A stretch of DNA of 62,503 bases. It comes from a virus. This document shows positions 29,356 to 50,153 of this stretch, one piece after another. The stretch is taken from the IMG/VR virus record IMGVR_UViG_3300027834_000006, positions 1-62,503 of that record; one strand, 5' to 3'. How positions within the stretch are numbered: position 1 is the first letter of the stretch; each line of letters begins with the position of its first letter. Made by a program: the position numbers and the translations under genes. The notes under the pieces are model-generated. The model was not told the DNA's origin. It worked only from the letters and a program-made list of their open reading frames with translations, and did not search any database.

Positions 29356-30303
29356 CTAAACCCTCCTGCCCCATAAAAGTTCGTTCACCATTTCCATATT
29401 ACTGCATATGCCCGGTACGCGTAAATCGTATTTCAGCATGGGTGCAATGTTTCTCACTATTTTAACCCGGCCTTTCAATGTAGAATCATCATGTTCCGAA
29501 AAAACTCTCTGCACATATCGATCAATCAGAGGAACCGCCAATTCATCCAGAACCTCATTAATCAAATAACCTGTTTCACCAAGAAAAACCGAGTCGGGAT
29601 CTTTACCTTCAGGCAATTCTACGATCTTCGGTGATATCCAACGATCAAGAAAAAGAGAAAGCGACTTGTACATGGCATTCCTACCGGCCTTATCTCCATC
29701 GAAAACGAGTGTGACGTTATTCGTTATACGAGACATCAATAGAACATGGCCCTTGGTGACGGCAGTTCCATTAGAGGCAACCACATTATATTTCCCCATG
29801 GCCTGTAGCGCGAAACAATCAAAAATGCCCTCCACCATATACAATACTTTCTTCGAATCAGGAGAATCCAGGGCTTTATCTATGCCAAAAAGACACTTTC
29901 CCTTTGAATATATCTCCGATGTAAGCGAATTGATGTATTTGGATCTCGTCCCTTCATCTATAGAACGACCAACAAACCCCACTACATGCTTATCAAGGTC
30001 ATATATGGGGATCATGATTCTGTCCCTATAGAAATCGTAAATGTCATTACCCTTTCTCACCACCAGGCCAACCGCGAAGGCCAGGTCAAGAAGGATGGGC
30101 CTGTTTTTGATCTTTTGATAAAAAGAATTACCCCGCCGTATAGCCAGTCCCAAGTTATTGCTCCTGCAAACTTTCTCGGATACCCCCCTTTTCGACATAT
30201 ACAACCTTGCCCTTTTGCCCACAGCAGTAATCCCCCAGAACTTCTTCTCGTAAAATCGTGCTGCTATCTGATTAATTCTATACAGGTTCCTAGGTTTTCT
30301 CAT
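29356..30303 (-). CDS. DnaG-type primase catalytic (TOPRIM) half
   Basis: The 315-residue product corresponds to the RNA polymerase core of DnaG. 'YMSKRGVSEKVCRSNNLGLA' aligns with the N-subdomain, 'DRIMIPIYDLDKHVVGFVGR' follows, and the TOPRIM part has 'VLYMVEGIFDCFALQAMG' (catalytic Glu) and 'NVTLVFDGDKAGRNAM' (DxD). The N-terminal CHC2 zinc domain is missing; a separate gene for it is at 41633-42112 on the other strand. The start overlaps a 31-residue gene as ATGA. It makes replication primers. Confidence 0.9.
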   Translation of the reverse strand: MRKPRNLYRINQIAARFYEKKFWGITAVGKRARLYMSKRGVSEKVCRSNNLGLAIRRGNSFYQKIKNRPILLDLAFAVGLVVRKGNDIYDFYRDRIMIPIYDLDKHVVGFVGRSIDEGTRSKYINSLTSEIYSKGKCLFGIDKALDSPDSKKVLYMVEGIFDCFALQAMGKYNVVASNGTAVTKGHVLLMSRITNNVTLVFDGDKAGRNAMYKSLSLFLDRWISPKIVELPEGKDPDSVFLGETGYLINEVLDELAVPLIDRYVQRVFSEHDDSTLKGRVKIVRNIAPMLKYDLRVPGICSNMEMVNELLWGRRV

Positions 30304-30461: not shown

Positions 30462-31199
30462 TCACAAATAAAGAGGTACCCCGTTTGGACCAAATGAGGT
30501 GGCATCAATATGACTCATAACATAATCTTCTACGGTTATACGCCCCTCCAAATCCACTTTTTTAATCATGGCCTCGTTACCCCTATAGCTCATCCCCCAG
30601 TTATCACAAAGTAACTGGCCCACTCTATTTCGGAGTTCATCACTGATAATCCTGTGAAGTATAATATGATCCGCTACGTATTGGGCGGAAGAAGGGTTTT
30701 GTGAGTATTTACCTGTTATTTTCTTAACTTCTTTATAGGTGGGGCCATCAAACCATTTTATGCGGATACCTGTTCCCCAAAAACCATCACCGTATCTTGC
30801 CAGTAAAATAAAACCAATTCCCGGAAATTGGTCTTTTAATTCTCTTCCGATTTTCTCCTTTCCCAATATCAACTTATCTCCCGGGGGAGTTTTGTACAAG
30901 GCCTGTTCCGTCTCTTTAATGTCACACGATATCCCGTTCCTTAGTTTTGTAACTTCTGTTTGCAAGGAAGACATTAGTTTTATTATTTCAGAATGGGTAG
31001 ATTCGGGATCGATGCAGGAACTACAAAGCTCAGGGTATAGAGGGCAAGTCTGACAATAACTACGCAAGCCCTGGTTATACAACTTGCAATATCCACATCC
31101 TTCAATCATCATTTTGTCAACACGTTCAAGCTCCCTCGATATATCCCTCCATTTATCTGCTGTATCATTTTTTTGTTTTAAAAATTCATCATTATTCAT
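30462..31199 (-). CDS. Fused Cys-rich + LPD29-like protein
   Basis: The 245-residue product joins two modules that occur as separate genes on the + strand. Residues 1-75 match the Cys-rich family ('EGCGYCKLYNQG', 'CQTCPLYPELCSSC'). Residues ~115-190 match an LPD29-like domain ('IGRELKDQFPGIGFILL', 'IKWFDGPTYKEVKKITGKY'). The C-terminus ('LCDNWGMSYRGNEAM...VEDYV') matches the tails of the paralogues at 35334 and 38680. This is the only member on the - strand. Fusion suggests the two modules act together. GGGGAGGGGAAAAAAC precedes the ATG. Confidence 0.82.
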   Translation of the reverse strand: MNNDEFLKQKNDTADKWRDISRELERVDKMMIEGCGYCKLYNQGLRSYCQTCPLYPELCSSCIDPESTHSEIIKLMSSLQTEVTKLRNGISCDIKETEQALYKTPPGDKLILGKEKIGRELKDQFPGIGFILLARYGDGFWGTGIRIKWFDGPTYKEVKKITGKYSQNPSSAQYVADHIILHRIISDELRNRVGQLLCDNWGMSYRGNEAMIKKVDLEGRITVEDYVMSHIDATSFGPNGVPLYL

Positions 31200-31226: not shown

Positions 31227-31415
31227 TCATATCAAATCCCAGAAATGCTCATCGACTGTTGCTGTATAATCGTAATTCAAATCCTCTGATTCCTCTATGA
31301 GAAGAGATGCGAATCGATGAATAATTTCTATTTGGGCATCAGTTACGTTGACAGTTTTCCCGGCAGTAATCTTAGCGCCTTTTTTACCGGTAACCATCGT
31401 TTCAGGCTTTTTCAT
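31227..31415 (-). CDS. Small acidic helical protein, unknown
   Basis: The 62-residue product starts 'MKKPETMVTGKKGAKITAG' and then has a helical acidic part ('QIEIIHRFASLLIEESEDL'). GAGGAATGAATC precedes the ATG. No motif was recognised. It belongs to the leftward early cluster of small genes. Confidence 0.65.
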   Translation of the reverse strand: MKKPETMVTGKKGAKITAGKTVNVTDAQIEIIHRFASLLIEESEDLNYDYTATVDEHFWDLI

Positions 31416-31726: not shown

Positions 31727-31918
31727 TCATGAGGTCTCGGGTTTGTATCCCGAGCAAAGATGAACTCCCAAAATCGTAAGAGTGCAATTTTGTTTTGAGT
31801 CATAATCTCTTGTGAATTCAGATATCTTGTTGTTTCTGGTAATTTCCCAATTCGTACACCTACCCTCTGTATTCCAGTAGCAATTATTTATACCCCCCTC
31901 TAATTCTATCCCATGCAT
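31727..31918 (-). CDS. Small Cys-containing protein, unknown
   Basis: The start at 31918 follows TTAGGAGAGAGTAGA. The 63-residue product has five cysteines ('NCYWNTEGRCTNWEI', 'NCTLTILGVHLCSGYKPE'), consistent with a small zinc or disulphide fold. A longer in-frame start at 31954 lacks a binding site. It lies between two leftward small genes. Confidence 0.65.
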   Translation of the reverse strand: MHGIELEGGINNCYWNTEGRCTNWEITRNNKISEFTRDYDSKQNCTLTILGVHLCSGYKPETS

Positions 31919-31947
31919 TCTACTCTCTCCTAAGTAAGTTGTGCAGT

Positions 31948-32163
31948 CTACCAAAAATCAATACTGCAATAAACCGGTCCTATCCACAGGCTAAGCCCAA
32001 AATCATAGTGATAGCCCATGTCAAAGCCGAAGCCCCAACGGAGCAAGGTTATCTCAACCTGGATATGGTCTGATTCAAACTGCCAATGATACCAGGGTTT
32101 ATTGTGTGAAAAAGGTTTGAATGTATCAGTCACTCTACCTCCCAAGTAATTCTTTGAGCGCAT
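31948..32163 (-). CDS. Small aromatic-rich protein, unknown
   Basis: The product is 71 residues from the ATG at 32163, which overlaps the upstream stop as TAATG, or 61 residues from a GTG at 32133 preceded by TTGGGAGGTAGA. It is rich in Trp, Tyr and Phe ('PWYHWQFESDHIQVEITLL', 'GYHYDFGLSLWIGPVYCSI') and may be a small beta-barrel or membrane-associated protein. Which start is used is uncertain. Confidence 0.6.
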   Translation of the reverse strand: MRSKNYLGGRVTDTFKPFSHNKPWYHWQFESDHIQVEITLLRWGFGFDMGYHYDFGLSLWIGPVYCSIDFW

Positions 32164-32924: not shown

Positions 32925-33200
32925 TCAATGGCATTCGCACATCCCCCCATTGTAAGCGTATGGGCCATGGTATCCTTGTGGGTCTTCAGTGTTATAATGT
33001 TCTCCTGGAACGCCGTACCAATATCTGCCATTTCCACAACAATCACAAATCCGAACATCATAATCTTCTCCATGTTCTCTTATCCAGGTCAACACACCGG
33101 CCACAAAGTAATCCAATTTTTTTAATTTTATCATTACATCCTGCGGAATTTGATGTGTGTTTATAAACCCGGTTCCGTCACATCTAGTACATGTCTTCAT
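32925..33200 (-). CDS. DnaJ-type zinc-finger early protein
   Basis: The start at 33200 follows CTTGGGAGGTAAATAT. The 91-residue product has two CxxCxGxG motifs as in the DnaJ central zinc domain ('CTRCDGTGF' near the start and 'CDCCGNGRYW' in the middle). The rest is rich in Gly, Tyr and His. There is no J domain, so it is not a co-chaperone in itself. It is the first gene of the leftward unit. Confidence 0.75.
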   Translation of the reverse strand: MKTCTRCDGTGFINTHQIPQDVMIKLKKLDYFVAGVLTWIREHGEDYDVRICDCCGNGRYWYGVPGEHYNTEDPQGYHGPYAYNGGMCECH

Positions 33201-33244
33201 ATATTTACCTCCCAAGTGATTCTCCAAATTTGTTAACTTAACAG

Positions 33245-33273
33245 ACGATAACATTCAGAAGGTTTCTTGTCAA
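33245..33273 (-). promoter_or_regulatory. First leftward early promoter
   Basis: TTGACA (33268-33273, - strand) is followed after 17 bases by TATCGT (33245-33250), with TGT ahead of it. It is the outermost leftward promoter and borders the non-coding origin-like region. Confidence 0.75.
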
Positions 33274-34079
33274 GAAGAAAATAATTTTTTTTGTTTTTTT
33301 GAGAATTTTACACCTGGGGACTATACCCCCCTTTTCTTATATATCAATACCAAAACCCCACGTGCCACCCCTCTCCACGCGCGCACATAACGCACACGCA
33401 CGCCTACACACACATATAACAACAACTAACAACTGACAAAAGACTCACAAGGTTTAGTCTTTTCACATAACAAACAACACTCATAAACTACAATACTAAC
33501 AAAAGACAAGGGTATACCCCTATTGTCCCTATTGAGTACACTTGACCAAGGTCTAGCCATAGATACTTAATGTCTAAGTACTGAGTGCAAGATATTTAGC
33601 GTGGAATATCTAGCCCTCAGTCATAGCCATCAAGTACCAATGCCTACATATTTGGTATTAGATACCCAGCATCAACTACCGGGTGTCAAGTATGAACACC
33701 GAGTATTGAGTACTTAATGCAGGGGACTTAGTGCTTGTTACTGAGTACCAACTGAGAAACCCTAACATTATCAGTCTTTTGGGAACAATGGAATATTGAG
33801 AGGTTCCGAGTGTCTCAGCATATTGTAAAAACGCTAAGGTGGCTTATAGCATCGACGATCAGAGGGCAAGGCATACGAATGTATCAGTTTTGTGCTTGCG
33901 TCTGTTAGAGGGCAAATAAGGGCTGTTAAATTGGATTTAAGGGTTTTTGTTGGGTTAGTCATGATAATAGTTACCTCCATAAAGTACTGTAAGTGTTTGA
34001 TATTGTTGAAGATTGTTCCCTTTATGGGTTAAAACGTAGGGACTATACATTTTCCCAAAACCCTCCTATTAGTTTTCAA

Positions 34080-34275
34080 TACTGATGTTTTCTTAATTTC
34101 CTTCTTAACTTCTTACTTCTCTTTAACTACCTTACAAAAAAACATTCAAGTCTTAGTTTCTTTAACTTCTTCTTGCTTTCTCTTTAATAGCTTCTTATTT
34201 TCTTTAACTAAACACTTTCTATTATCTTCTTTTAATCCCTTCTTATTCCTTTATTTTCTCTTTACTGGTTTTTAT
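34080..34275 (+). repeat. Pyrimidine-rich tract
   Basis: About 200 bases of the + strand are almost all T and C with scattered A, built from irregular copies of words such as CTTCTTA and TTTCTTTAACT. Such strand asymmetry is typical of DNA unwinding or primase entry regions and of some terminator-like RNA sequences. No coding frame is present. Confidence 0.6.
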
Positions 34276-34304
34276 ATAACTTCTTTTTAATAAAATCTTT
34301 TGAT

Positions 34305-34505
34305 AAGATCTTTTAATAATCTATTCTGTAAGGGTTTCTTAACAAGTCTTTACTTAGTAGTTTTTTAAAGACAAAAGAAGCCTGTAGGAGAATGAAAAGT
34401 ACTAAAAACATGTAAAGACTTGATAAAAAGATGAAGATCTTTTATTAAGGTTTCTTTATTATTCTTTCATTAAAGACTTTTATTATTCTTGTATAAAGAT
34501 CTTTA
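34305..34505. repeat. Three AAGATCTTT palindromes in AT-rich DNA
   Basis: AAGATCTTTT occurs at 34305-34314 and 34434-34443, and the perfect 12-bp palindrome TAAAGATCTTTA at 34494-34505. Related TAAAGACTTT words lie between them. The regular recurrence in AT-rich DNA next to the main rightward promoter suggests binding sites of a phage initiator or regulator. Confidence 0.5.
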
Positions 34506-34604
34506 TATTAATATCTTTTATTATAGTACCTGACTGGGGGGATTTTGTCAAGGAGAAAAAAGCTTTTTATTTCGTTTTGCGTACCGGGCATTGAAGTTTT
34601 TTAC

Positions 34605-34633
34605 TTGACAAGAATAATCTTATTTGGTATAAT
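34605..34633 (+). promoter_or_regulatory. Main rightward early promoter (perfect consensus)
   Basis: TTGACA (34605-34610), 17 bases, then TATAAT (34628-34633) preceded by TGG as an extended -10. This is a perfect sigma-70 consensus. It lies 51 bp before the first + strand gene and should be recognised by the host polymerase at once after DNA entry. Confidence 0.9.
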
Positions 34634-34684: not shown

Positions 34685-34969
34685 ATGACAAGATTAGAGT
34701 TAGGAACCCAAAATATTACTCAGGACCTGAAGAAGGCTTTCCCAGGATGTGACTTTACGGTTATTCCCACCATCTTAGATAGCCAAAAATCATTCATCGG
34801 TGTATATTGGATGCCAGGTCCATCCCTCAAAGCAGTTGACAAAGTAGTAGCTAAATATGCCCTAGGTGTTTGGAATGATAAGACTGAAGTTTATGATTAT
34901 AGTCCTGAAGCTATCGCCTTTGGTGATGAAAGGGGAGGAGCAACTTTTATCTGGACAAAGACAATATGA
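34685..34969 (+). CDS. LPD29-like protein, copy 1
   Basis: The 94-residue product is a diverged member of the LPD29-like family: 'LGTQNITQDLKKAFPGCDF', then 'VYWMPGPSLKAVDKVVAKY' and an ending 'GGATFIWTK' that matches the paralogues. It is the first gene after the main rightward promoter. LPD29 domains were described in polyvalent proteins of phages and conjugative elements that enter the cell early. The biochemical role is unknown. AAAGGGAGAAAGAAA precedes the ATG. Confidence 0.78.
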   Translation: MTRLELGTQNITQDLKKAFPGCDFTVIPTILDSQKSFIGVYWMPGPSLKAVDKVVAKYALGVWNDKTEVYDYSPEAIAFGDERGGATFIWTKTI

Positions 34970-34997
34970 TAACTTAATTCAAGAAAGGGAGAAAAAA

Positions 34998-35306
34998 ATG
35001 AATAAAGAGGAAATCTTAAAAAACAAACTGCAATCACAAGAAAAGTGGAACGATGTATTGAAGGGCATCCACGCCCTGGAAAGTAATATTATCGACAAAG
35101 AAGGTTACTGTAGAATATATCAAGATTGCACGATAAGCAGAAAACACGAGTGCCACGATTGCCCTTTATATCAATGTGAAGCCTGTAGCCCTGAAGAAGA
35201 TGATAACTCACTCTATACACAGATCTTAATTGCACTTGATAAAATGGAGCGGCTTACTGCGGGCTTGCTAGAAGATATAAAAGACGATATCGCTGCAACC
35301 ATCTAA
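34998..35306 (+). CDS. Cys-rich early protein, copy 1
   Basis: The 102-residue product begins 'MNKEEILKNKLQSQEKW', has a Cys cluster ('EGYCRIYQDC', 'ECHDCPLYQCEACSP'), and ends in a helix ('KMERLTAGLLEDIKDDIAATI'). The layout (helix, CxxC-type zinc site, helix) recurs in six other genes here. AAGGGAGAAAAAA precedes the ATG; a longer frame starting in the previous gene is not supported. It alternates with LPD29-like genes. Confidence 0.8.
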   Translation: MNKEEILKNKLQSQEKWNDVLKGIHALESNIIDKEGYCRIYQDCTISRKHECHDCPLYQCEACSPEEDDNSLYTQILIALDKMERLTAGLLEDIKDDIAATI

Positions 35307-35333
35307 TGTAAACCAAAAAAAGAGAGGTGAAAC

Positions 35334-35786
35334 ATGAAAAGACAGATGAGAGATTACACGTTAGGAGCAAAGAATATAAGGAAAGAATTGAAGGCTGCGT
35401 TTCCCGCCATTAAGTTTTCTGTGCGCTCAAAAGGGTATGCTGGAGGTTGCAGCATCCATATAGATTGGATCGAAGGGCCAACCGAAGAAGCAGTAGAGAA
35501 GATAACCAACAAGTATGAGCAGGGATCTTTCGACGGGATGATAGATCTATACACATACGATACAGACAGAGAATTTACCGACAAAAACGGAGGAGCAAAA
35601 TATGTCTTTACTCATCGAAAATATAAAGCTGAAACCGAAGAAGCACTTGGTAGAAAACTTTGCAAAGAAAACGGCGTAGAGTATGACGGCGAAGAAACAA
35701 GGCATTTATGGGGATCACAAGACCCAAGACTTTTAAGGACTCATGTTTGGGAAGAGCTTAGCAAAACATCTTTTAACACCAACTAA
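35334..35786 (+). CDS. LPD29-like protein, copy 2
   Basis: The 150-residue product is a full LPD29-like protein: 'LGAKNIRKELKAAFPAIKFS', 'IHIDWIEGPTEEAVEKITNK', 'GSFDGMIDLYTYD' and a C-terminal tail 'YDGEETRHLWGSQDPRLLRT'. It is collinear over its whole length with the protein at 37599-38051 (both 150 residues). GAGAGGTGAAAC precedes the ATG. See the LPD29 entry at 34685 for the family. Confidence 0.85.
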   Translation: MKRQMRDYTLGAKNIRKELKAAFPAIKFSVRSKGYAGGCSIHIDWIEGPTEEAVEKITNKYEQGSFDGMIDLYTYDTDREFTDKNGGAKYVFTHRKYKAETEEALGRKLCKENGVEYDGEETRHLWGSQDPRLLRTHVWEELSKTSFNTN

Positions 35787-35817
35787 TAGCAATAACTTTA
35801 TGAAAAAGGGAGAAAAC

Positions 35818-36891
35818 ATGCATATAACTATTGAGCAAAAAACACTGAAAGACGCGCTAAAGAAAATTCAAGACTGTGTTAAAAAAGACAGGAACCTTGC
35901 CCTCACTTCACACGTATCAATCACAACAGGTGTTGACTCTGTGACCTTCTCCGCTACAAACCTGGACGTTTACCTTGATATGCAATGTAAGGCTGTTGTG
36001 GCTACTCATGGTTCTTGTGTTGTAGACAGAGAAGCACTTAAGGTTTTGACCAAACAGGCGACAAAAGAAACAATTACTATTTTCACAGAGAGAAACAATG
36101 AAATAGGGTTTCGCAAGGGAACTTTAAACACAACACTTGACGCACATGACCCGCTTCCTGTTGCTCCAGCCGAAGGCGCCCTCCCTTTTAGTTCCATTAA
36201 TGCCAAAAACCTGGCCGAAATGATAAAAAACACATCTTATGCGGTGTCCACTGATGAAGATCGAGCAGATGTAATGTGCGTTTACCTGGAAAGTCAAAAC
36301 CAAGGAATGAGTATGGTAGCAACAGACGGGCACCGCCTGTCCTTCATGAGGCTAGAAGATAAAATAGATTCATTTTCTTCTATTCTTATCTCCAAAAAAA
36401 GCACAGACGCACTGTATAAACTACTTAAAAAATGCCCTCAAAACCTGGTAATGATGGGTGCTAGCGATGAAACACTAGTAATTAAAAGCGATACTGAAAT
36501 TATGTCAATAAGAATTCAAGGGGATATTTTCCCTGATTATAAGAAAATAATTCCCAAAAACAATGACATAAGAATTGAGGTTAATGCAGCCACTTTAAAA
36601 GAAGCAATTCTTTCTTGTCCCTTCTCTAAAAAGAATTATATTCTTGGCCTGGAAATAACAAAAGACAAGATTACAATTACCGGAACGAACACACCCCTTG
36701 ATATTGCCACGCTAAACCCCATAAGTGAAGACATCAGCATAAACCTTAATTATAAATATCTGCTCGATGTTTTGGCGACAATCGACGGAACGATGGTTGA
36801 ATTGGCTTTCTTGGATTCCGCCTCTTCCGTTCTAATAACAGAACCGGGAAATTATTGCAAGCTGGCCCTGATAATGCCAATACAAACTTGA
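35818..36891 (+). CDS. dnaN: DNA polymerase III sliding clamp (beta subunit)
   Basis: The 357-residue product is a bacterial-type beta clamp: 'MHITIEQKTLKDALKKIQDC' at the start, 'VATDGHRLSFMRL' in domain 2, 'GDIFPDYKKIIPKNN' and the terminal 'LALIMPIQT' that matches the usual VMPM ending. Length fits the family (~366). Phages usually borrow the host clamp, so an own copy is unusual, and no phage DNA polymerase was recognised in this genome. AAAGGGAGAAAAC precedes the ATG at 35818. It may redirect host polymerase or protect against clamp-directed defence. Confidence 0.93.
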   Translation: MHITIEQKTLKDALKKIQDCVKKDRNLALTSHVSITTGVDSVTFSATNLDVYLDMQCKAVVATHGSCVVDREALKVLTKQATKETITIFTERNNEIGFRKGTLNTTLDAHDPLPVAPAEGALPFSSINAKNLAEMIKNTSYAVSTDEDRADVMCVYLESQNQGMSMVATDGHRLSFMRLEDKIDSFSSILISKKSTDALYKLLKKCPQNLVMMGASDETLVIKSDTEIMSIRIQGDIFPDYKKIIPKNNDIRIEVNAATLKEAILSCPFSKKNYILGLEITKDKITITGTNTPLDIATLNPISEDISINLNYKYLLDVLATIDGTMVELAFLDSASSVLITEPGNYCKLALIMPIQT

Positions 36892-36916
36892 TGTAAACCA
36901 AATAAGGGGGATAAAC

Positions 36917-37015
36917 ATGAGTTACAAGGAAATTTGGCTCACAGCGCTTACGGCAATCGGTATAACGGCAATTGTTATTACCTTAATGGCTATAGCTGAA
37001 AGAATAGGTTTCTGA
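36917..37015 (+). CDS. 32-residue membrane protein
   Basis: The frame begins at ATG 36917 after AAGGGGGATAAAC and encodes 'MSYKEIWLTALTAIGITAI' followed by 'VITLMAIAERIGF', i.e. one membrane helix. It is too short for most gene finders. Function unknown. Confidence 0.6.
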   Translation: MSYKEIWLTALTAIGITAIVITLMAIAERIGF

Positions 37016-37053
37016 AAGCAAAAAAAACAAACCAAAAAAAAGGAGAACGTATC

Positions 37054-37287
37054 ATGGAAAGAGACAATGATTGGAATGTGAAAGCCGATGCATTTCTTAA
37101 GGTGCTTGAAAATATTAGAGTGAGCGTGCGACTTTATCAAGAAGGAGAACCGAGGAAACAGGCAGAAACCCATATCAAAAAACTTTTAGCTTGCAATAAT
37201 CTTCCTGATTATCATTCTGGGCTTATTATGCGAGCTGTAGATTCTTGCATATTTGACATCATTCATGTTATAGAGTATGATAGATAA
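37054..37287 (+). CDS. Small helical early protein, unknown
   Basis: The 77-residue product is helical ('DAFLKVLENIRVSVRLYQEG', 'SGLIMRAVDSCIFDIIHVIE'). AAAAAGGAGAACGTATC precedes the ATG. No homology was recognised. It interrupts the Cys-rich/LPD29-like series. Confidence 0.7.
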   Translation: MERDNDWNVKADAFLKVLENIRVSVRLYQEGEPRKQAETHIKKLLACNNLPDYHSGLIMRAVDSCIFDIIHVIEYDR

Positions 37288-37335
37288 ATCCAGGTCAAAC
37301 CTTGACATTTATAAAGGCAAAAAAAGGAGAATACA

Positions 37336-37584
37336 ATGAGAGTGAGAGAATTTGAGGCCATGATCGAGAGAAGAAGTGGCTTTTGTTTTCTATACCTGGC
37401 AGCTCATGGCGAAAAGGGAAAAGCTTGCGATAATTGCCCTCTGCATAAAAATGGAGCGTGTAGCGTATACTATGAAGATAATTCACTTTTTACGCAAGTC
37501 CGAAATGCACGCGCAAAAATGGAACGATTAACAAAACAATTATGGCAAAAAATAGAAAAAGCAATCGAGAACCCAACCAAATAA
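37336..37584 (+). CDS. Cys-rich early protein, copy 2 (shortened)
   Basis: The 82-residue product lacks the usual N-terminal helix and starts near the Cys cluster ('RRSGFCFLYLAAHGEKGKAC' then 'DNCPLHKNGACSV'). The shared 'EDNSLFTQV' and 'KMERLTKQL' segments follow. The start ATG has AAAAAGGAGAATACA before it. It pairs with the LPD29-like gene 15 bp downstream. Confidence 0.78.
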   Translation: MRVREFEAMIERRSGFCFLYLAAHGEKGKACDNCPLHKNGACSVYYEDNSLFTQVRNARAKMERLTKQLWQKIEKAIENPTK

Positions 37585-37598
37585 AAGGAAGGTGTGAA

Positions 37599-38051
37599 AT
37601 GAAAAGAGAACTGAGTGAACAGGCGCTAGGAGCAAAGAACATCAGGAAAGAGTTGAAGGCTGCGTTTCCGGGCATTAAGTTTTCTGTATGTTCAGAGTCG
37701 TTTGCAGGCGGGAACGCTATTGAGGTAGACTGGACCGACGGACCCACAAGAACGGAAGTGGAGAGAATAACGGCTAAGTACAAACATGGGAATTTTGACG
37801 GAATGACCGATTCTTATACGTACAAGCCGGACAGTGCCGAGAGTGCCGAGAGAGGCGGCGCCATGTATGTGCAAATACAACGGCATTACAGCGCTGAGAC
37901 AATGGAGAAGCAAGGCAGAGAACTTTGCCGTAAACAGAAGATAGAATACGAAGGGAACGCCACCAGATATCTTTACGGCCCATCAGACTGCGACCGTCTA
38001 TCTGTTCACGTTTACAGAGAACTTGCGAAAAAATCTTTTAAGACTAACTGA
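37599..38051 (+). CDS. LPD29-like protein, copy 3
   Basis: The 150-residue product closely matches the 35334-35786 protein over its full length ('LGAKNIRKELKAAFPGIKFS', 'VDWTDGPTRTEVERITAKYK', 'GNFDGMTDSYTY', 'HVYRELAKKSFKTN'). The start at 37599 follows AAAGGAAGGTGTGAA; a longer frame overlaps the previous gene without a binding site. It is the best preserved family member. Confidence 0.86.
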   Translation: MKRELSEQALGAKNIRKELKAAFPGIKFSVCSESFAGGNAIEVDWTDGPTRTEVERITAKYKHGNFDGMTDSYTYKPDSAESAERGGAMYVQIQRHYSAETMEKQGRELCRKQKIEYEGNATRYLYGPSDCDRLSVHVYRELAKKSFKTN

Positions 38052-38065
38052 AAGGGAGGGAAAAG

Positions 38066-38374
38066 ATGGACAAAAAAGAGATCTTAAGAATGAAACAAGG
38101 AACAAAAGTGAAATGGGATGGTATTGCAAGAAAACTACGTCTTATTGAGAAAGACATCGCTACTTGCTGCGGTTATTGTATGGCATATAAAAAAGAATCT
38201 TTAACTAAAAAACATCCCTGTTGTCATTGCCCACTATATAAAAGTAGATCTTGTAGCGCGAAAGTGGAAGACAATTCCGTTTTCACTCAAGCTCTGAATA
38301 CGATTAAAAAGTTAGAAGGTTTTACGAAAATAATCCAGAAAGATATAAAAGACGATATCTCCGCAACTATCTAA
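38066..38374 (+). CDS. Cys-rich early protein, copy 3
   Basis: The 102-residue product has the same length as copy 1 and the same plan: 'MDKKEILRMKQGTKVKW', 'CCGYCMAYKKES', 'PCCHCPLYKSRSCSA', then 'DIKDDISATI' at the end, which matches copy 1 ('DIKDDIAATI'). GGGAGGGAAAAG precedes the ATG, 14 bp after the previous stop. Confidence 0.8.
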   Translation: MDKKEILRMKQGTKVKWDGIARKLRLIEKDIATCCGYCMAYKKESLTKKHPCCHCPLYKSRSCSAKVEDNSVFTQALNTIKKLEGFTKIIQKDIKDDISATI

Positions 38375-38397
38375 TAAACAAAAAAAGGAGAACGACC

Positions 38398-39468
38398 ATG
38401 GAAACATTAACAAAAGAAAATGCTCCACGGGTGGATACAATAAAATTAAAATGTTTTCCTTTTTTTATTGCAAGAAAGTTTAATTACAAAAAGCACCACT
38501 TTAGCAATGATGCTTTTGTGAGTTCATATGAAGGCCCAGGATATAGAATGGGCCTTCGAGAAAATAATTATCACTTATGGACTGTTGCATCTTGGAAAAA
38601 GGGAGGAAAAGCCATGGATACAATATTAGGCTATGAAGATATTAAGGTAGATCGAATAATATTTAAAAAGAGGAGAACCATGAATAAAAACGAGATTTTA
38701 AAACAGAAGATTGAATCAGCGGAGAATTGGGACAAGAGGTTACTTGAGCTTGAGCGTCTCGGTAATAAAATGGGTGAAAAATGCGGGTATTGCAACTTAT
38801 ACAGAAAAAGTGCTGCTAATTATCATCCTGATTGCCGCTGTTCTGACTGCCCTTTATATCCAAAGCTTTGCAGTATGAAGAAAGAAACCCCCTCTACTTA
38901 TACTAAGATATGGGAATTAATGGAGGCCTTACAGGAGGAATGCTCTGAATTAAAAGACGGAATCGAAAAAGACATTGAGCATACAAGGGAAACCCTCAAA
39001 GAAGAGAAGCCCTTGGACAACTTAGCCCTGGCAGTAGAAAACCTTATTAAAGAGTTAGGGGAGGCGTTTCCGGGGATCAAATTTATTTTGAGATCAAAAA
39101 AACATGAAGCTCCCTGGGGGTGTGCCATTCACGTAAGGTGGATTGATGGACCTACCAAAAAAGAAGTAAAAAAAATAACCGATAAATACGAACGCAAGAA
39201 CCACCTCGGTGGCGTTCTCCCTAATGGTGTGGTAACTTATGTTGCAAGCCGGAGAATTCATAGCCATAAAACCAAAACCAGGATAGGGCAAATCCTCTGT
39301 GATTCGTTTTCGATGAAATACAGGGGAAACGAGGGCAGCCACGTATACGGGCAGCCGGGGTGTAAAACTATTGATGACTATGTCAAAAAAAACATCCGAG
39401 ATACTTCATTTGATTCAAAAGGCAATATATTGCACATAGATCAAGATCCCACGTATCTTGAACGATAA
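38398..39468 (+). CDS. Long frame: N-terminal domain + Cys-rich + LPD29-like
   Basis: The 356-residue open frame has three parts. Residues 1-94 are a separate small domain ('FSNDAFVSSYEGPGYRMGLR', 'LWTVASWKKGGKAMDTILGY'). From Met 95 (38680, after AGAGGAGAACC) a Cys-rich module ('EKCGYCNLYRKS', 'CSDCPLYPKLC') is joined to an LPD29-like domain ('LIKELGEAFPGIKFILRSKK', 'VRWIDGPTKKEVKKITDKY') and the shared tail. A third start at 38614 also has GGGAGGAAAAGCC. The upstream gene may have fused by loss of its stop, or two proteins may be made from one frame. Confidence 0.78.
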   Translation: METLTKENAPRVDTIKLKCFPFFIARKFNYKKHHFSNDAFVSSYEGPGYRMGLRENNYHLWTVASWKKGGKAMDTILGYEDIKVDRIIFKKRRTMNKNEILKQKIESAENWDKRLLELERLGNKMGEKCGYCNLYRKSAANYHPDCRCSDCPLYPKLCSMKKETPSTYTKIWELMEALQEECSELKDGIEKDIEHTRETLKEEKPLDNLALAVENLIKELGEAFPGIKFILRSKKHEAPWGCAIHVRWIDGPTKKEVKKITDKYERKNHLGGVLPNGVVTYVASRRIHSHKTKTRIGQILCDSFSMKYRGNEGSHVYGQPGCKTIDDYVKKNIRDTSFDSKGNILHIDQDPTYLER

Positions 39469-39493
39469 CTTTATAAAAAGGGAGGGGCGACCC

Positions 39494-39787
39494 GTGGGAA
39501 AAGAATACATCTTGAAAAAGAAAAAGAAAGCAGAAACAAAATGGAAAAGCATATTGAGGAAAACCCAAGCATTAAAACGCCAATTATATAGCCGCTGCGG
39601 TTACTGTGAATTGAGCACCACTTGTGCCGATTGTCCATTGAGCGGGAATGTGTGTGGACCGCGCAAGGGCATGACGGATTCACTCTATGGCAATATTGCA
39701 TATAGAATTAGAGAGCTCGAACATGACGTGGAAAGTTTCAATCTTGCCATTAAAAGAGATATCAAAAAAACTAACGACTCTAAATAA
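39494..39787 (+). CDS. Cys-rich early protein, copy 5
   Basis: A GTG at 39494 with GGGAGGGGCGACCC in front is preferred over an upstream ATG. The 97-residue product has 'SRCGYCELSTTCADCPLSGN' followed by VCG, i.e. the same CGYC...CxxCPL...C core with a shorter spacer, plus the flanking helices ('KKKKKAETKWKSIL', 'ELEHDVESFNLAIKRDIKK'). It follows the fused gene at once. Confidence 0.75.
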   Translation: MGKEYILKKKKKAETKWKSILRKTQALKRQLYSRCGYCELSTTCADCPLSGNVCGPRKGMTDSLYGNIAYRIRELEHDVESFNLAIKRDIKKTNDSK

Positions 39788-39804
39788 AGGGGGAGATTGC
39801 AATC

Positions 39805-40092
39805 ATGAATGAAAAAGAGATCATGGCAAAGAAAAATGAGTCAAAGAAAAGGTGGAGTAATATAAAGGAATCTACCTTCGACTTACTGATAAGGGCAAAA
39901 GCCCCCTGTGGCTACTGTAATATATTTGAAGATCTCTGTAGTGAGTGCCCCCTCGATGGTAAAATATGCTCTTCCGACAACTCTCTTCACGGTAAAGCAG
40001 TAAGTGCATTAAAAACAGCCTATGAAAACGCTTTAGCCCTGCGCGATGCGATAGTGAAAGACATTGAGCAAAGCAAATTAAGGGGAAGTTAA
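39805..40092 (+). CDS. Cys-rich early protein, copy 6
   Basis: The 95-residue product has 'MNEKEIMAKKNESKKRWSNI', the core 'PCGYCNIFEDLCSECPLDGK' with ICS, and a helical end 'ALALRDAIVKDIEQSK'. AAGGGGGAGATTGCAATC precedes the ATG. It is the last of the series before a terminator. Confidence 0.78.
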   Translation: MNEKEIMAKKNESKKRWSNIKESTFDLLIRAKAPCGYCNIFEDLCSECPLDGKICSSDNSLHGKAVSALKTAYENALALRDAIVKDIEQSKLRGS

Positions 40093-40206: not shown

Positions 40207-40368
40207 ATGGAACAAGATATTAAAAAATGTGACTGCGGAAAAGTGGCTACCGGACGATATTATTATCCATATTTAGGAGGCTTATGGAAATATCAATGCG
40301 CAAAGTGCGCTGCTGGGTTTCAAGCATTTGAACCGCTACCGGATTTTAAAGGGGGTGGCTATGAATAA
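40207..40368 (+). CDS. 53-residue zinc-ribbon protein
   Basis: The frame starts at 40207 after TGAGGGAAAA and encodes a zinc ribbon with 'KCDCGKVATGRYYYPYLGG' and 'YQCAKCAAGFQAF' (CxC and CxxC). Its last codons overlap the next gene by 8 bp. It is the first gene after the terminator. Confidence 0.65.
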   Translation: MEQDIKKCDCGKVATGRYYYPYLGGLWKYQCAKCAAGFQAFEPLPDFKGGGYE

Positions 40369-40937: not shown

Positions 40938-41141
40938 ATGAAACCCGGATCTTTGATTCTTTTGGTTTTGTTGATTTTCTCATTCGTTGTCATTTGCTGT
41001 TTAAACCGTGATCTTCACAGAGTAAAAAACATGCTTGAACGCCAAAACGAACTCAGCAGACAAATGGTTGAGATGACACAGAACAAAACATTGATTCTTT
41101 TGGAGGGAACAATAGATGAAAGAAAAGAATTTTCAGAGTGA
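40938..41141 (+). CDS. Small membrane-anchored coiled-coil protein
   Basis: The 67-residue product has an N-terminal membrane helix ('LILLVLLIFSFVVICCL') and a cytoplasmic coiled-coil ('LHRVKNMLERQNELSRQMVE'). GAGGTACAAC before the ATG at 40938 favours it over the ATG at 40926. It overlaps the RecU-like gene by 26 bp. This layout resembles Rz/i-spanin or small anchor proteins, but its early position argues against lysis. Confidence 0.6.
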   Translation: MKPGSLILLVLLIFSFVVICCLNRDLHRVKNMLERQNELSRQMVEMTQNKTLILLEGTIDERKEFSE

Positions 41142-41655
41142 GTTCAAGAAAAACAACAAGATACATGGCGTGTTTGAACTGAAGCTTTGCAAGGGTGTTT
41201 CTCTGCCGTTCTCTTCCGTAAAACCGCATCAGGAAAAGGCCCTGCTGGCCGCAACTACTATGGAGGGCTTGTATTACAAGATCCCCGATCAGCCCGTTTC
41301 TGAAATGGAAGAAGATGCCCCGAAGGAAAACGAAAACAACAAGCAAAAGGGAAAGAAAATACGATTCACCCTGCCGAAACCGTTCGACTGTTTTCTGGTT
41401 AAGAATACTCCCGCATACGTTGTCATAATGTTTTATGTTCCTCGAAAGAAAAAAACGGTGTATTATATCCCTATCGGGGATTTTCTTGAAATGAAAAACT
41501 CAGTGACACGAAAATCAATGACCGAAGAAATGTTGGGCAAATATGCCACATCGATTCAATCATGGTTGAAGGGATGCAGGACTTTTACGGTGGGCGAAAA
41601 TCAAAGAGACTGTTCGATAATAGGGGACTGGTTTGGACAACCGAAAAAAAAATAA
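41116..41655 (+). CDS. RecU-like Holliday junction resolvase
   Basis: The 179-residue product resembles RecU/PBP-related factor A type nucleases. The PD-(D/E)XK core has Glu in 'HGVFELKLCKGVSLPFSSV' (E-x-K), followed by 'KPHQEKALLAA' with the conserved HQ, and beta strands 'FDCFLVKNTPAYVVIMFYV'. An insertion with charged residues follows the HQ helix. It would resolve replication or recombination intermediates. GGAGGGAACAATAG precedes the ATG. Confidence 0.72.
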   Translation: MKEKNFQSEFKKNNKIHGVFELKLCKGVSLPFSSVKPHQEKALLAATTMEGLYYKIPDQPVSEMEEDAPKENENNKQKGKKIRFTLPKPFDCFLVKNTPAYVVIMFYVPRKKKTVYYIPIGDFLEMKNSVTRKSMTEEMLGKYATSIQSWLKGCRTFTVGENQRDCSIIGDWFGQPKKK

Positions 41656-42112
41656 ATGTGTTGACAAAGAAAACATTTATGATATAATGGTTTCAGAATC
41701 CATTGAGTTGATGGACCATGGGAATTGCCTGAAGGCACTCTGCCCGTTTCATGATGACACGAACCCTTCCATGGCGGTATATCCCCAGAAAAATCGTTGG
41801 TGGTGTTTTGTATGCCAGGAGGGGGGAGATAGCATAGATTTTATAATGAGATACAAGAAGATGAACTTTGTGAGGGCATGTGATTATTTGGGTGTTTACA
41901 AAACCTCCGCACATAAGAAAAATGACAAAAAAAACGTATTGGATCTGGCCGTTTGCAGGAATGAGAAGGATAGGAACGTGATCAATAAGTTACTGAAGGA
42001 TGAGTTCGAGCAAATTATCGCAGACGGAGACAATTACAGGGTTAACGTGAAGTTTACATCCGACAATAAAATAATGGTTTTCCGGGTTATGTCCCGGAGT
42101 CAAACAGAATGA
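41633..42112 (+). CDS. Primase CHC2 zinc-binding half
   Basis: The 159-residue product (TTG start at 41633 after AGGGGACTGGT) corresponds to the N-terminal domain of DnaG: 'IYDIMVSESIELMDHGNCLK', then 'LCPFHDDTNPSMAVYPQKNR' and 'WWCFVCQEGGDSIDFIMRY', giving the Cys-His-Cys-Cys zinc site. The RNA polymerase core is encoded separately at 29356-30303 on the opposite strand. The C-terminal ~60 residues are unrelated to DnaG and may bind the partner. The two would have to assemble to prime. Confidence 0.88.
   Translation: MDNRKKNKCVDKENIYDIMVSESIELMDHGNCLKALCPFHDDTNPSMAVYPQKNRWWCFVCQEGGDSIDFIMRYKKMNFVRACDYLGVYKTSAHKKNDKKNVLDLAVCRNEKDRNVINKLLKDEFEQIIADGDNYRVNVKFTSDNKIMVFRVMSRSQTE
41661..41688 (+). 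promoter_or_regulatory. Consensus-like promoter inside the primase zinc gene
   Basis: TTGACA (41661-41666), 16 bases, then TATAAT (41683-41688) match both sigma-70 hexamers. The site lies within the first codons of the primase zinc gene, so any transcript would lack this gene's start and serve the genes that follow. It may be a secondary promoter or coincidence in AT-rich coding DNA. Confidence 0.5.
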
Positions 42113-42435: not shown

Positions 42436-42461
42436 TCACTGAAGAAAGGAGGGCATACAAA

Positions 42462-42728
42462 ATGAAAGGGGCCATTGTTTTACGGCGGCTGACTTATGTG
42501 ATGAGGAGTTATGCAAGATCAAGCCTGGTAAAAAAACTTTTTTCAACAATGTTTTTTGGCCGTGTTTCGTTGGTACTTGGGGCATTTGGTGTATTGATTA
42601 TTTTTATTGGGCGACTGACTGGCGTGATCGCGGACGGTGACGGGGCTGTATGCGGTTTGATAGTGGCAATTGGAACTAGTGTGGGGATAGCGGTGGAGGG
42701 TTATATCGATGATATTAGAGAAGAATAA
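42462..42728 (+). CDS. Membrane protein of a three-copy N-terminal family
   Basis: The start at 42462 follows AAAGGAGGGCATACAA. The 88-residue product opens with 'MKGAIVLRRLTYVMRSYARS', closely matching the openings of the genes at 43508 and 43727, then has two membrane helices ('VSLVLGAFGVLIIFIGRL', 'AVCGLIVAIGTSVGIAVEG'). No LPD29-like domain follows, unlike the 43727 product. Confidence 0.7.
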   Translation: MKGAIVLRRLTYVMRSYARSSLVKKLFSTMFFGRVSLVLGAFGVLIIFIGRLTGVIADGDGAVCGLIVAIGTSVGIAVEGYIDDIREE

Positions 42729-43480: not shown

Positions 43481-43507
43481 CCCCATGAATGTGCGAGGGC
43501 ATACAAC

Positions 43508-43684
43508 ATGAAAGAGGACCTTGTTTTACGGCGGCTGACTTACGTGATGAGGAGTTATGCCACGGCCATTTGTGGTATGATTTCTGGGAAAGTAAAGGCA
43601 ATAAGATGGAGAGACGGACCTGGGTTTTTTGTGTTCTGGATTGTTTCTTGGGGAGGGGCATATTTGTTGAGCCTCCTCCGGTAG
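43508..43684 (+). CDS. Truncated member of the three-copy membrane/LPD29 family
   Basis: The 58-residue product starts 'MKEDLVLRRLTYVMRSYATA' and shares a 41-base identical DNA stretch (43553-43593) with the gene at 43727 (43772-43812). It has one membrane helix and then stops (TAG at 43682). Just past this stop another frame reads 'VALKTEL', matching the start of the LPD29-like domain in the longer copy. The gene therefore looks like a decaying duplicate that lost its C-terminal domain by frameshift. Confidence 0.6.
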   Translation: MKEDLVLRRLTYVMRSYATAICGMISGKVKAIRWRDGPGFFVFWIVSWGGAYLLSLLR

Positions 43685-43726
43685 CACTTAAGACCGAACT
43701 ATAACAAATGACGGAGGGCATCCAAA

Positions 43727-44176
43727 ATGGAAGAAGAGCTTGCCTTGAGGCGCCTGGCTTGCGTGATAAGAAGTTATGCCACGGCCATTTGTGGTATGAT
43801 TTCTGGGAAAGTGAAAAAATTGAGCGAAGTGAGATCAGGCGTGATATCGGGAATTGTAATTTGGTTGTGCATTGTTGTTTTTGTGTGGGGTTTCTTGCGG
43901 TTGAAGATTTCCCCCTATACCGCGTTAGCGCTCAAGGCCGAACTAAACAGCGAGTTCCCTGGGGTTGAGTTCTCGATTGAACGTAACAGATGGCATTCCG
44001 TGATTGTTGACTGGACCGACGGACCCGAAAACAATCAGGTAACTCCAATAGTGAGGGGATACGCGTGCGGGCAGACAATTCGTTATACTTCGACTGAGGA
44101 ATCAGGCAAAGAGGGGGTCTGTCTCAATGTATTTCATGAAGCCTGGCCTTGTCCAATGATGAGAAGAGGTTCATAA
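43727..44176 (+). CDS. Membrane-anchored LPD29-like protein
   Basis: The 149-residue product has the family opening 'MEEELALRRLACVIRSYATA', a membrane helix ('SGVISGIVIWLCIVVFVWGF'), and a C-terminal LPD29-like domain ('ALKAELNSEFPGVEFSIERN', 'VIVDWTDGPENNQVTPIVRG'). It is the only family member predicted to sit at the membrane, with the domain on one side. ACGGAGGGCATCCAAA precedes the ATG. Its stop overlaps the next ATG. Confidence 0.78.
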   Translation: MEEELALRRLACVIRSYATAICGMISGKVKKLSEVRSGVISGIVIWLCIVVFVWGFLRLKISPYTALALKAELNSEFPGVEFSIERNRWHSVIVDWTDGPENNQVTPIVRGYACGQTIRYTSTEESGKEGVCLNVFHEAWPCPMMRRGS

Positions 44177-49685: not shown

Positions 49686-50153
49686 TTACCATCGTCTTTT
49701 GCCGCCGTCTGCTGTGTCAAGGTGGAATCCCCAGTCATATCGGTGAAACCCGGCGGGCCATGAATCCCTGAGATCATAATAGATCTCTTCGTGTAGTGTT
49801 TTTTGGGGGATTGCTTCCTTGACATCTACTGCCTCAAAATCAGTAGCACAGGGATAGTTCCTGCCCGGGCGGAACATATGACAAGAATCCCAGTTTACAG
49901 GCAATCCCAGATCTTTGTAAATCTGTTCGTGCCTGTCAGCGCAGCTCCAACCGCGGGAAAGGATGATCCTGATTGAATCCGTTTCGTGTCTCCCGTTTAA
50001 ACCCGCCCTGATCGTCTCTAGTGCCCACAATATCGGCATCATCCTGCTGATTATTGTTTCTATATTATACCGGTCATGAAACGGGCAATGCTTCCCGGTA
50101 CAATATATTTCATGTAGCTTGATGTGCGGAGTCAATAGCCGGTCTGAGTACAT
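49686..50153 (-). CDS. Endolysin, peptidase M15A-like
   Basis: The 155-residue product matches M15A (D-Ala-D-Ala carboxypeptidase-like) endolysins: 'IRIILSRGWSCADRHEQIY', 'DSCHMFRPGRNYPCATDFEA' (zinc His and Asp), and 'AGFHRYDWGFHLDTADGG' (final zinc His). It would cleave the peptide stems of the host cell wall. It is the last gene of the leftward unit in the circular map. No signal peptide is present, so a holin is needed. Confidence 0.85.
   Translation of the reverse strand: MYSDRLLTPHIKLHEIYCTGKHCPFHDRYNIETIISRMMPILWALETIRAGLNGRHETDSIRIILSRGWSCADRHEQIYKDLGLPVNWDSCHMFRPGRNYPCATDFEAVDVKEAIPQKTLHEEIYYDLRDSWPAGFHRYDWGFHLDTADGGKRRW

What the first reader, a model, noticed from the sequence alone, without database searches (positions are those of the whole stretch)
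34685..40092. Alternating expansion of Cys-rich and LPD29-like early genes
Seen: seven Cys-rich modules (core CGYC...CxxCPL...C) and six LPD29-like modules (core ELKxxFPGxxF...WxDGPT...V..I..KY) occur in this genome, mostly as neighbouring genes right after the strongest promoter. Some pairs have identical lengths (102 and 102; 150 and 150). Known: LPD29 occurs in polyvalent proteins of phages and conjugative elements linked to intergenomic conflict. Inference: a diversified two-component early system, perhaps anti-defence, kept variable by duplication. I know of no description of the Cys-rich partner.
Basis: partly seen in the sequence, partly recalled or inferred. Interest (0 to 1): 0.9.

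Follow-up and report, generated by a model that had tools for sequence, protein, structure and literature searches.

The report
Paired zinc-hairpin and LPD29 phage genes
A bacterial virus carries many copies of two small proteins, often side by side and twice fused into one, at the start of its early genes; a second, otherwise different virus carries the same set, which suggests tools for taking over or disarming the host cell, although no function has been shown.

Summary
The window (an IMG/VR phage record) has seven Cys-rich modules and six LPD29 (PF18847) modules. Each is recovered by a profile built without it (E 6e-8 to 2e-43). Two are natural C-to-L fusions. Four of the six L modules have a C module directly upstream. 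A perfect sigma-70 promoter precedes L1. New here: a second phage (G001) with a different terminase and head protein shares the cassette (7 C, 3 L, one fusion), but not the window's portal, terminase, reductase, primase, helicase or annealing protein. One G001 L gene is an L2/L3 chimera. Elsewhere LPD29 is single-copy with no Cys-rich neighbour (38 of 38 stretches). On plasmids it lies near TraM, relaxase, antirestriction or PsiA genes in 9 of 11 inspected stretches. The Cys-rich family matches no Pfam or PHROG family convincingly. Its predicted fold is a helical hairpin with the cysteines at the tip. Best explanation: a mobile early establishment or counter-defence module, with the Cys hairpin as N-terminal partner of LPD29 (confidence 0.45). 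Not shown: physical interaction, zinc, anti-defence activity, diversifying selection (dN/dS below 1).

The parts
34605..34633 (+). Perfect sigma-70 promoter match (TTGACA-17-TATAAT, TG before the second hexamer)
   Evidence: the match is sequence only, activity is inferred
34685..34969 (+). L1, LPD29 protein, 94 aa
   Evidence: PF18847 32.1 bits; left-out profile E 4e-16
34998..35306 (+). C1, Cys-rich protein, 102 aa
   Evidence: left-out profile E 1e-28
35334..35786 (+). L2, LPD29 protein, 150 aa
   Evidence: PF18847 87.3 bits; AlphaFold model pLDDT 86.3
35803..36891 (+). Sliding clamp (DnaN), 362 aa, inside the cluster; G001 has only a 115-aa clamp-domain-1-like protein
   Evidence: Pfam DNA_pol3_beta domains 1-3; phrog_947 E 1e-48
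37336..37584 (+). C2, Cys-rich protein, 82 aa, lacks most of the first helix
   Evidence: left-out profile E 9e-15
37599..38051 (+). L3, LPD29 protein, 150 aa
   Evidence: PF18847 79.6 bits
38066..38374 (+). C3, Cys-rich protein, 102 aa; 85% identical copy in G001
38680..39468 (+). C4-L4, natural fusion of a Cys-rich module and LPD29, 262 aa (the frame is open upstream to 38398)
   Evidence: AlphaFold model pLDDT 87.5, pTM 0.58
39494..39787 (+). C5, Cys-rich protein (GTG start), 97 aa
   Evidence: left-out profile E 3e-18
39805..40092 (+). C6, Cys-rich protein, 95 aa
   Evidence: left-out profile E 2e-16
30462..31199 (-). C7-L7, second natural Cys-rich/LPD29 fusion, 245 aa, in the divergent gene cluster
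43895..44176 (+). L8, LPD29 module; true start unclear, the open frame begins further upstream; Pfam match at 43916-44077
   Evidence: 41.1 bits; left-out profile E 6e-8
41116..41655 (+). RecU/Holliday-junction-resolvase-like protein, 78% identical over 152 aa in G001
   Evidence: phrog_843 E 6e-12
40207..40368 (+). Small Cys-containing cassette protein, 81% identical in G001
31727..31954 (-). Small cassette protein, 84% identical over 62 aa in G001; relatives in two further contigs that lack C and L modules
31227..31415 (-). Small cassette protein, 78% identical over 51 aa in G001
32925..33254 (-). Cassette protein with CxxC pairs; DNA 79% identical to G001 over 292 bp

Best explanation
This is an early, host-directed 'establishment' module of a phage, most likely counter-defence. 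It is carried on a cassette that moves between otherwise different phages. Each working unit is a Cys-rich module joined to, or made next to, an LPD29 domain. The Cys-rich module is predicted to be an antiparallel two-helix hairpin whose tip holds four or five cysteines, probably zinc-binding. It occupies the N-terminal partner position that LPD30 or LPD25 occupies in plasmid LPD29 proteins. I propose that LPD29 binds a target (a host or defence enzyme, or DNA) while the hairpin holds the complex together or sets its specificity. Several C/L versions made at once would cover several targets, and recombination between near-identical stretches such as L2 and L3 makes new versions and deletes what lies between. 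Shown: homology, copy number, fusions, early position, sharing between two different phages, the chimera, and plasmid neighbourhoods. Predicted: folds. Inferred: zinc, complex formation, target, counter-defence role.
For: All modules are homologous within each family. There are two C-to-L fusions in the window and one in G001. The fusions group together in the C tree (87/79) and in the L tree (92/87). Four of six L modules have a C directly upstream or fused (L2, L3, L4, L7). G001 carries another terminase and head family and matches 21 of 91 window ORFs, 10 of them C/L ORFs. The window's portal, terminase, ribonucleotide reductase, primase, helicase, annealing protein and large virion proteins are among the 70 without a match, yet cassette DNA is up to 91% identical. 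The G001 L gene follows L2 (up to 59/60 bases) and switches to L3-C3 sequence at its 3' end (56/60). LPD29 is single-copy with no Cys-rich neighbour in 38 of 38 other LPD29 stretches. TraM, relaxase, antirestriction or PsiA genes are annotated near LPD29 in 9 of 11 inspected plasmid stretches. Leading regions of plasmids are reported as enriched in anti-defence genes (PMC11541004, passages read).
Against: No activity is known for LPD29 or the Cys-rich family. The 11 plasmid stretches come mostly from related enterobacterial or Aeromonas plasmids, no control set was counted, and 2 of 11 (Streptomyces, Paenibacillus) lack such neighbours. The same cassette carries a sliding clamp and a RecU-like protein, which fits DNA replication as well. 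The arrangement of the two domains in the fusion model is uncertain (pTM 0.58). L1, L8, C3, C5 and C6 have no obvious exclusive partner. dN/dS is below 1 throughout. Pair-by-pair co-duplication (C1-C2 with L2-L3) is not resolved by the trees.
Confidence: 0.45

Rival explanations
1. Replication or recombination accessory factors: C and L proteins work with the clamp and the RecU-like resolvase on phage DNA; early position reflects early DNA synthesis.
For: A clamp gene sits inside the cluster and a clamp-like fragment beside the modules in G001; the RecU-like gene is one of the best conserved shared genes. In Aphanizomenon phage CL131 a DNA polymerase III beta gene lies three genes downstream of the LPD29 gene. 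The LPD29 model weakly resembles KH-II/BON/BolA arrangements, some of which bind nucleic acid (the binding is general knowledge).
Against: The two phages share neither primase, helicase nor annealing protein. Multiple diverged copies are unusual for replication factors. In plasmids LPD29 lies near transfer and antirestriction genes. LPD29 fold matches are at or below Z 7.4, the level of common arrangements.
Confidence: 0.27
2. Two unrelated accessory families that simply pile up in the early region; adjacency and fusion are by-products of many small genes under one promoter and carry no functional meaning.
For: Lone copies exist (L1, L8, C5, C6, and G_C35157 in G001). The Cys-rich family occurs without LPD29 in L009, L014, L034 and a Campbellbacteria genome, and LPD29 without Cys-rich in 38 of 38 other stretches.
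Against: The fusion is kept in three genes that group together in both trees. Among the places examined, LPD29 is multi-copy only in the two genomes that also have the Cys-rich family.
Confidence: 0.18
3. A toxin-antitoxin-like or regulatory pair acting on host transcription, the Cys-capped hairpin being the regulator.
For: Small adjacent gene pairs; a hairpin with a metal-type tip is a common protein-binding device (model; the generalisation is from memory).
Against: No toxin or regulator match in Pfam, PHROGs or PADLOC; fusion of both parts argues against neutralisation of one by the other.
Confidence: 0.06

Closest known systems
LPD29 (PF18847, PHROG 15549), large polyvalent protein associated domain 29
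   Same: All six L modules score above Pfam's cut-off; PHROG 15549 matches all four L proteins that were scanned (L1, L2, L3 and C4-L4). The family occurs in phages and conjugative elements.
   Different: Here LPD29 is in small one- or two-domain proteins, six copies in one genome, with a Cys-rich partner instead of the LPD30 or LPD25 found N-terminal to it in plasmid proteins.
Leading-region (establishment) genes of conjugative plasmids with LPD29, e.g. near TraM, ArdB-type antirestriction protein, PsiA and DNA methylase
   Same: Expected to be expressed first on entry; LPD29 present; such regions are reported as rich in anti-defence genes (PMC11541004, passages).
   Different: Single LPD29 copy, no Cys-rich module, and entry as single-stranded DNA (general knowledge), unlike this phage.
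Anti-defence or host-takeover islands of phages
   Same: Cluster of small early genes behind a strong promoter, shared between different phages.
   Different: Built from repeated copies of two families; no known anti-defence gene recognised in it.
Cys-rich KW...CGYC...CxxCPL...C proteins in L009, L014, L034 and a Campbellbacteria genome
   Same: Same motif order with an upstream KW helix; profile E about 1e-3 to 1e-7.
   Different: No LPD29 beside them; no name in Pfam or PHROGs for the three viral ones.

Membership tests
LPD29 (PF18847) | Profile match above the curated cut-off of 27 bits | tested here: met
   6 of 6 modules, 31.3 to 88.0 bits
LPD29 (PF18847) | Whole 93-position domain present | tested here: inconclusive
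   Complete to the end of the profile in L2 and L3 (7-93); partial in L1 (9-70), L4 (6-59), L7 (10-63), L8 (5-59)
Polyvalent proteins (PMC5512222) | Large proteins with 2 to 15 domains in one chain | tested here: not met
   Proteins are 82-262 aa; only the two fusions have two domains. The definition is from the abstract as shown in the search listing.
Cys-rich family (this report) | First helix with KW, CGYC, CxxCPL, final C | tested here: met
   Motif columns in alignments A1 and A3; C1 and C2 lack the first Cys, C2 lacks most of the first helix
Zinc-binding domain | Bound metal | not testable with these tools
   Only the Cys pattern is seen; Pfam zinc-finger matches of C1 (FYVE types, E 0.0036 or more) are below cut-off
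KH type II / BON / BolA-like folds (for LPD29) | Structural match standing above background | tested here: inconclusive
   Best Z 6.9, rmsd 2.0, 64 aligned (DolP); no Foldseek E at or below 0.001
SMC/Rad50-type coiled coil (for the Cys-rich hairpin) | Structural match standing above background for helical proteins | tested here: inconclusive
   Z 9.8, rmsd 1.8, 71 aligned (Smc head coiled coil), under the level of about 13 that the tool gives for helical proteins
Anti-defence genes | Early expression | tested here: inconclusive
   Perfect promoter match upstream; no expression data
Anti-defence genes | Inhibits a host defence system | not testable with these tools
   Needs the experiments under the next steps

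The most novel reading that the evidence does not exclude
A mobile two-component 'mix and match' counter-defence arsenal: Cys-hairpin and LPD29 proteins act as obligate pairs (or fusions), each pair aimed at a different host defence. The cassette is traded between unrelated phages of one host, and new specificities arise by recombination between paralogues, as in the L2/L3 chimera.
Probability: 0.22. Interest if true: 0.82.

Novelty: new variant of a known kind. Interest (0 to 1): 0.58.

Why it matters
LPD29 is found on hundreds of plasmid records (378 of 72,556) and in varied phages, but no function was found in the papers searched. A natural system with six copies, a dedicated partner and fusions gives a tractable handle on what LPD29 does. 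If the counter-defence reading is right, it would show a repeat-built early cassette that unrelated phages exchange, and it points to a protein family (the Cys-capped hairpin) not covered by Pfam and PHROGs.

Tried and rejected
Cys-rich relatives by alignment-based loci search: not possible for lack of conserved stretches, so DNA patterns were used. Of the 24 and 14 stretches found, only those of G001 plus L009, L014 and L034 hold a module by profile (E at or below 0.001); most others are chance frames. A pattern scan of 84,980 species gave 9 stretches, of which one (Campbellbacteria, 4 copies in its genome) matches the profile. A survey of 192 genomes of that phylum found 2 with a match, one being that genome itself, which is partly in the model, and no LPD29 (the control genomes rang nowhere). 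So that phylum is not the general home of the family.

LPD30 as a distant relative of the Cys-rich module: profile comparison with LPD30/LPD29 plasmid proteins gives probability 0.2%, rejected.

Assembly chimera as the reason for the G001 match: rejected, because identity is 68-92% rather than near 100%, and G001 has a 101-bp end repeat.

dN/dS: of ten pairs named in the script, two gave no value because my coordinates ran into a stop (RecU-like gene, 31727 gene) and one (C1-C3) because synonymous sites were saturated; they were not repeated.

Host identification was not achieved. Two further contigs sharing one small cassette gene (L123, L124) and a contig with a RecU-like relative (L087) have no C or L module; these records may be fragments.

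Full report
What is there. The window is a virus record of 62,503 bases with a T7-type portal, terminase, internal virion protein, DnaB-like helicase, RecT-like protein and a sigma factor. Its early region starts at a perfect TTGACA-17-TATAAT site (34605-34633), one of two such sites in the window against 0.08 expected. Reading rightwards: L1 (94 aa), C1 (102), L2 (150), a sliding clamp (362), small ORFs, C2 (82), L3 (150), C3 (102), a C4-L4 fusion (262), C5 (97) and C6 (95). L8 lies at 43.9 kb. A second fusion, C7-L7 (245 aa), lies on the other strand at 30.5-31.2 kb. 'Early' is inferred from the promoter and position.

Is it more than chance? Yes. Profiles made without the module in question recover it in 7 of 7 Cys-rich cases (E 9e-15 to 1e-28) and 6 of 6 LPD29 cases (E 6e-8 to 2e-43) among 723 six-frame fragments. 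All six L modules exceed Pfam's LPD29 cut-off. The Cys-rich modules share a KW helix, CGYC, CxxCPL and a last Cys. They have no convincing Pfam or PHROG match; the best weak ones are FYVE zinc fingers at E 0.0036 for C1, below cut-off, and phrog_1254 at E 0.0027 for one G001 copy.

A second phage. IMG/VR contig 3300027852_000011 (G001, 45,089 bases with a 101-bp end repeat) carries seven Cys-rich and three LPD29 modules, counting the gene on the junction once. Of 91 window ORFs compared with G001, 21 match at E 1e-4. Ten of these are C/L ORFs. The other 11 are the clamp (42% over 116 aa, to a 115-aa clamp-like protein), the RecU-like gene, small cassette genes, one opposite-strand frame, a lysin-like protein (59%) and two weaker matches. 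The 70 without a match include portal, terminase, ribonucleotide reductase, primase, helicase, annealing protein and large virion proteins. G001 has its own terminase (phrog_38) and head protein (phrog_9953); its portal weakly matches the same PHROG as the window's (phrog_156, E 3e-5). The cassette therefore moved between different phages, presumably of one host (inference).

How the set changes. Clear counterparts between the phages are C3 (85%), C4-L4 (62% and 56% by part), C5 (50%), C6 (50%) and L2/L3 (87% and 56%). The others have no clear partner. The single L2/L3-type gene of G001 is a chimera: it follows L2 closely (59/60 and 58/60 bases in two blocks) and at its 3' end switches to L3 and the following C3 gene (56/60). 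This is what recombination between L2 and L3 would give, and in the window the clamp gene lies between them. The direction of change is not known. The three fusions form one group in the C tree (87/79) and in the L tree (92/87); most other branches are unresolved. Pairwise dN/dS is 0.16 for L2 against its G001 copy, 0.19 for L2-L3, 0.24 for C4-L4, 0.25 for the 40207 gene, 0.43 and 0.65 for C3 and C6, and 0.10 for the two window fusions, where synonymous sites are saturated; three further pairs gave no value. So there is purifying selection, with Cys-rich modules changing faster, and no sign of positive selection over whole genes.

Elsewhere. In 38 other LPD29 stretches (23 IMG/VR contigs, 4 phage records, 11 plasmids; some near-duplicates; flanks of at most 8 kb) LPD29 occurs once each and no Cys-rich module is found (which also covered three stretches fetched through other genes; the single weak match, E 0.75, has no cysteines). 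LPD29 matches 378 of 72,556 plasmid records, 209 of them typed conjugative. Of 11 plasmid stretches inspected (3 among the best matches and 8 of 14 spread rows), 9 have TraM, a relaxase, an antirestriction protein or PsiA in the stretch: an antirestriction gene in 4, PsiA in 3, TraM or a relaxase in 7. The Streptomyces and Paenibacillus stretches have none. No control genes were counted. The N-terminal neighbour inside those proteins is LPD30 or LPD25 in 3 of 4 plasmid proteins of Enterobacterales or Aeromonas that were scanned, LPD30 just under its cut-off. The polyvalent-protein paper also links LPD30 with LPD29 (PMC5512222, passages).

Folds. LPD29 (L2) is predicted with pLDDT 86.3 and pTM 0.78 as alpha-beta-beta-alpha-beta-alpha with extra short strands. 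The nearest solved folds are BON, ring-building, OsmC, BolA and KH-II-like domains at Z 6.9 or less, which may be only a common arrangement. In the fusion (pLDDT 87.5, pTM 0.58) the Cys-rich part is two long helices (3-31, 73-108) with the cysteines between them; that they pack as an antiparallel hairpin is read from the matches to coiled-coil hairpins. The best match is an SMC coiled coil, Z 9.8, within the usual range for helical models. Relative placement of the two parts is not reliable.

Function. The early place, the sharing between different phages, the repeated and recombining copies and the plasmid neighbourhoods point to a host-directed establishment or counter-defence role, with the Cys hairpin standing in for LPD30/LPD25 as partner of LPD29. 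I give this 0.45. A replication role (clamp and RecU-like neighbours) is the main rival at 0.27. Nothing here demonstrates binding, zinc or activity.

Literature. The name LPD29 occurs in 2 of 5.39 million held papers: the defining paper (PMC5512222, passages) and a Mycoplasma hominis study (PMC11096450, one passage). The leading-region paper (PMC11541004, passages) does not name LPD or polyvalent proteins in its main text. A search for texts on early genes shared by unrelated phages gave 3 listings, none read. I therefore found no printed description of the pair, within these searches.

Noticed in passing
window 29356-30303 (-) and 41633-42112 (+): DnaG primase appears split into two genes on opposite strands: catalytic/Toprim part at 29.4 kb and CHC2 zinc-ribbon part at 41.7 kb.
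   Followed up: partly
window 42442-42550, 43488-43596, 43707-43815: Three direct copies of a 109-nt stretch (67-100% identity) in the region upstream of L8; purpose unknown.
   Followed up: no
window 41661-41688: Second perfect sigma-70 promoter match, overlapping the 5' end of the CHC2 ORF; its true start may be downstream.
   Followed up: no
L059:13826-14173 (-): G001 encodes an isolated 115-aa protein like domain 1 of a sliding clamp, next to the modules; a full clamp sits in the same cluster in the window.
   Followed up: partly
L090 and its genome G007: A Campbellbacteria (Patescibacteria) genome has four Cys-rich KW...CGYC...CPL proteins, rare in that phylum sample (2 of 192).
   Followed up: partly
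window 49686-50153 (-): Small lysin-like protein (the peptidase M15 resemblance is from memory) shared with G001 at 59% identity although most virion genes differ; suggests the same host.
   Followed up: no
window 33255-34604: About 1.35 kb without convincing genes between the two divergent gene clusters, with many T-rich tracts; possible origin or regulatory region.
   Followed up: no
window 38398-38679 (+): A small LTKENA-type ORF reads in frame into the C4-L4 fusion; a relative stands alone in G001 (L058:2602-2889, minus strand), so it may be a separate gene or a third fused part.
   Followed up: partly
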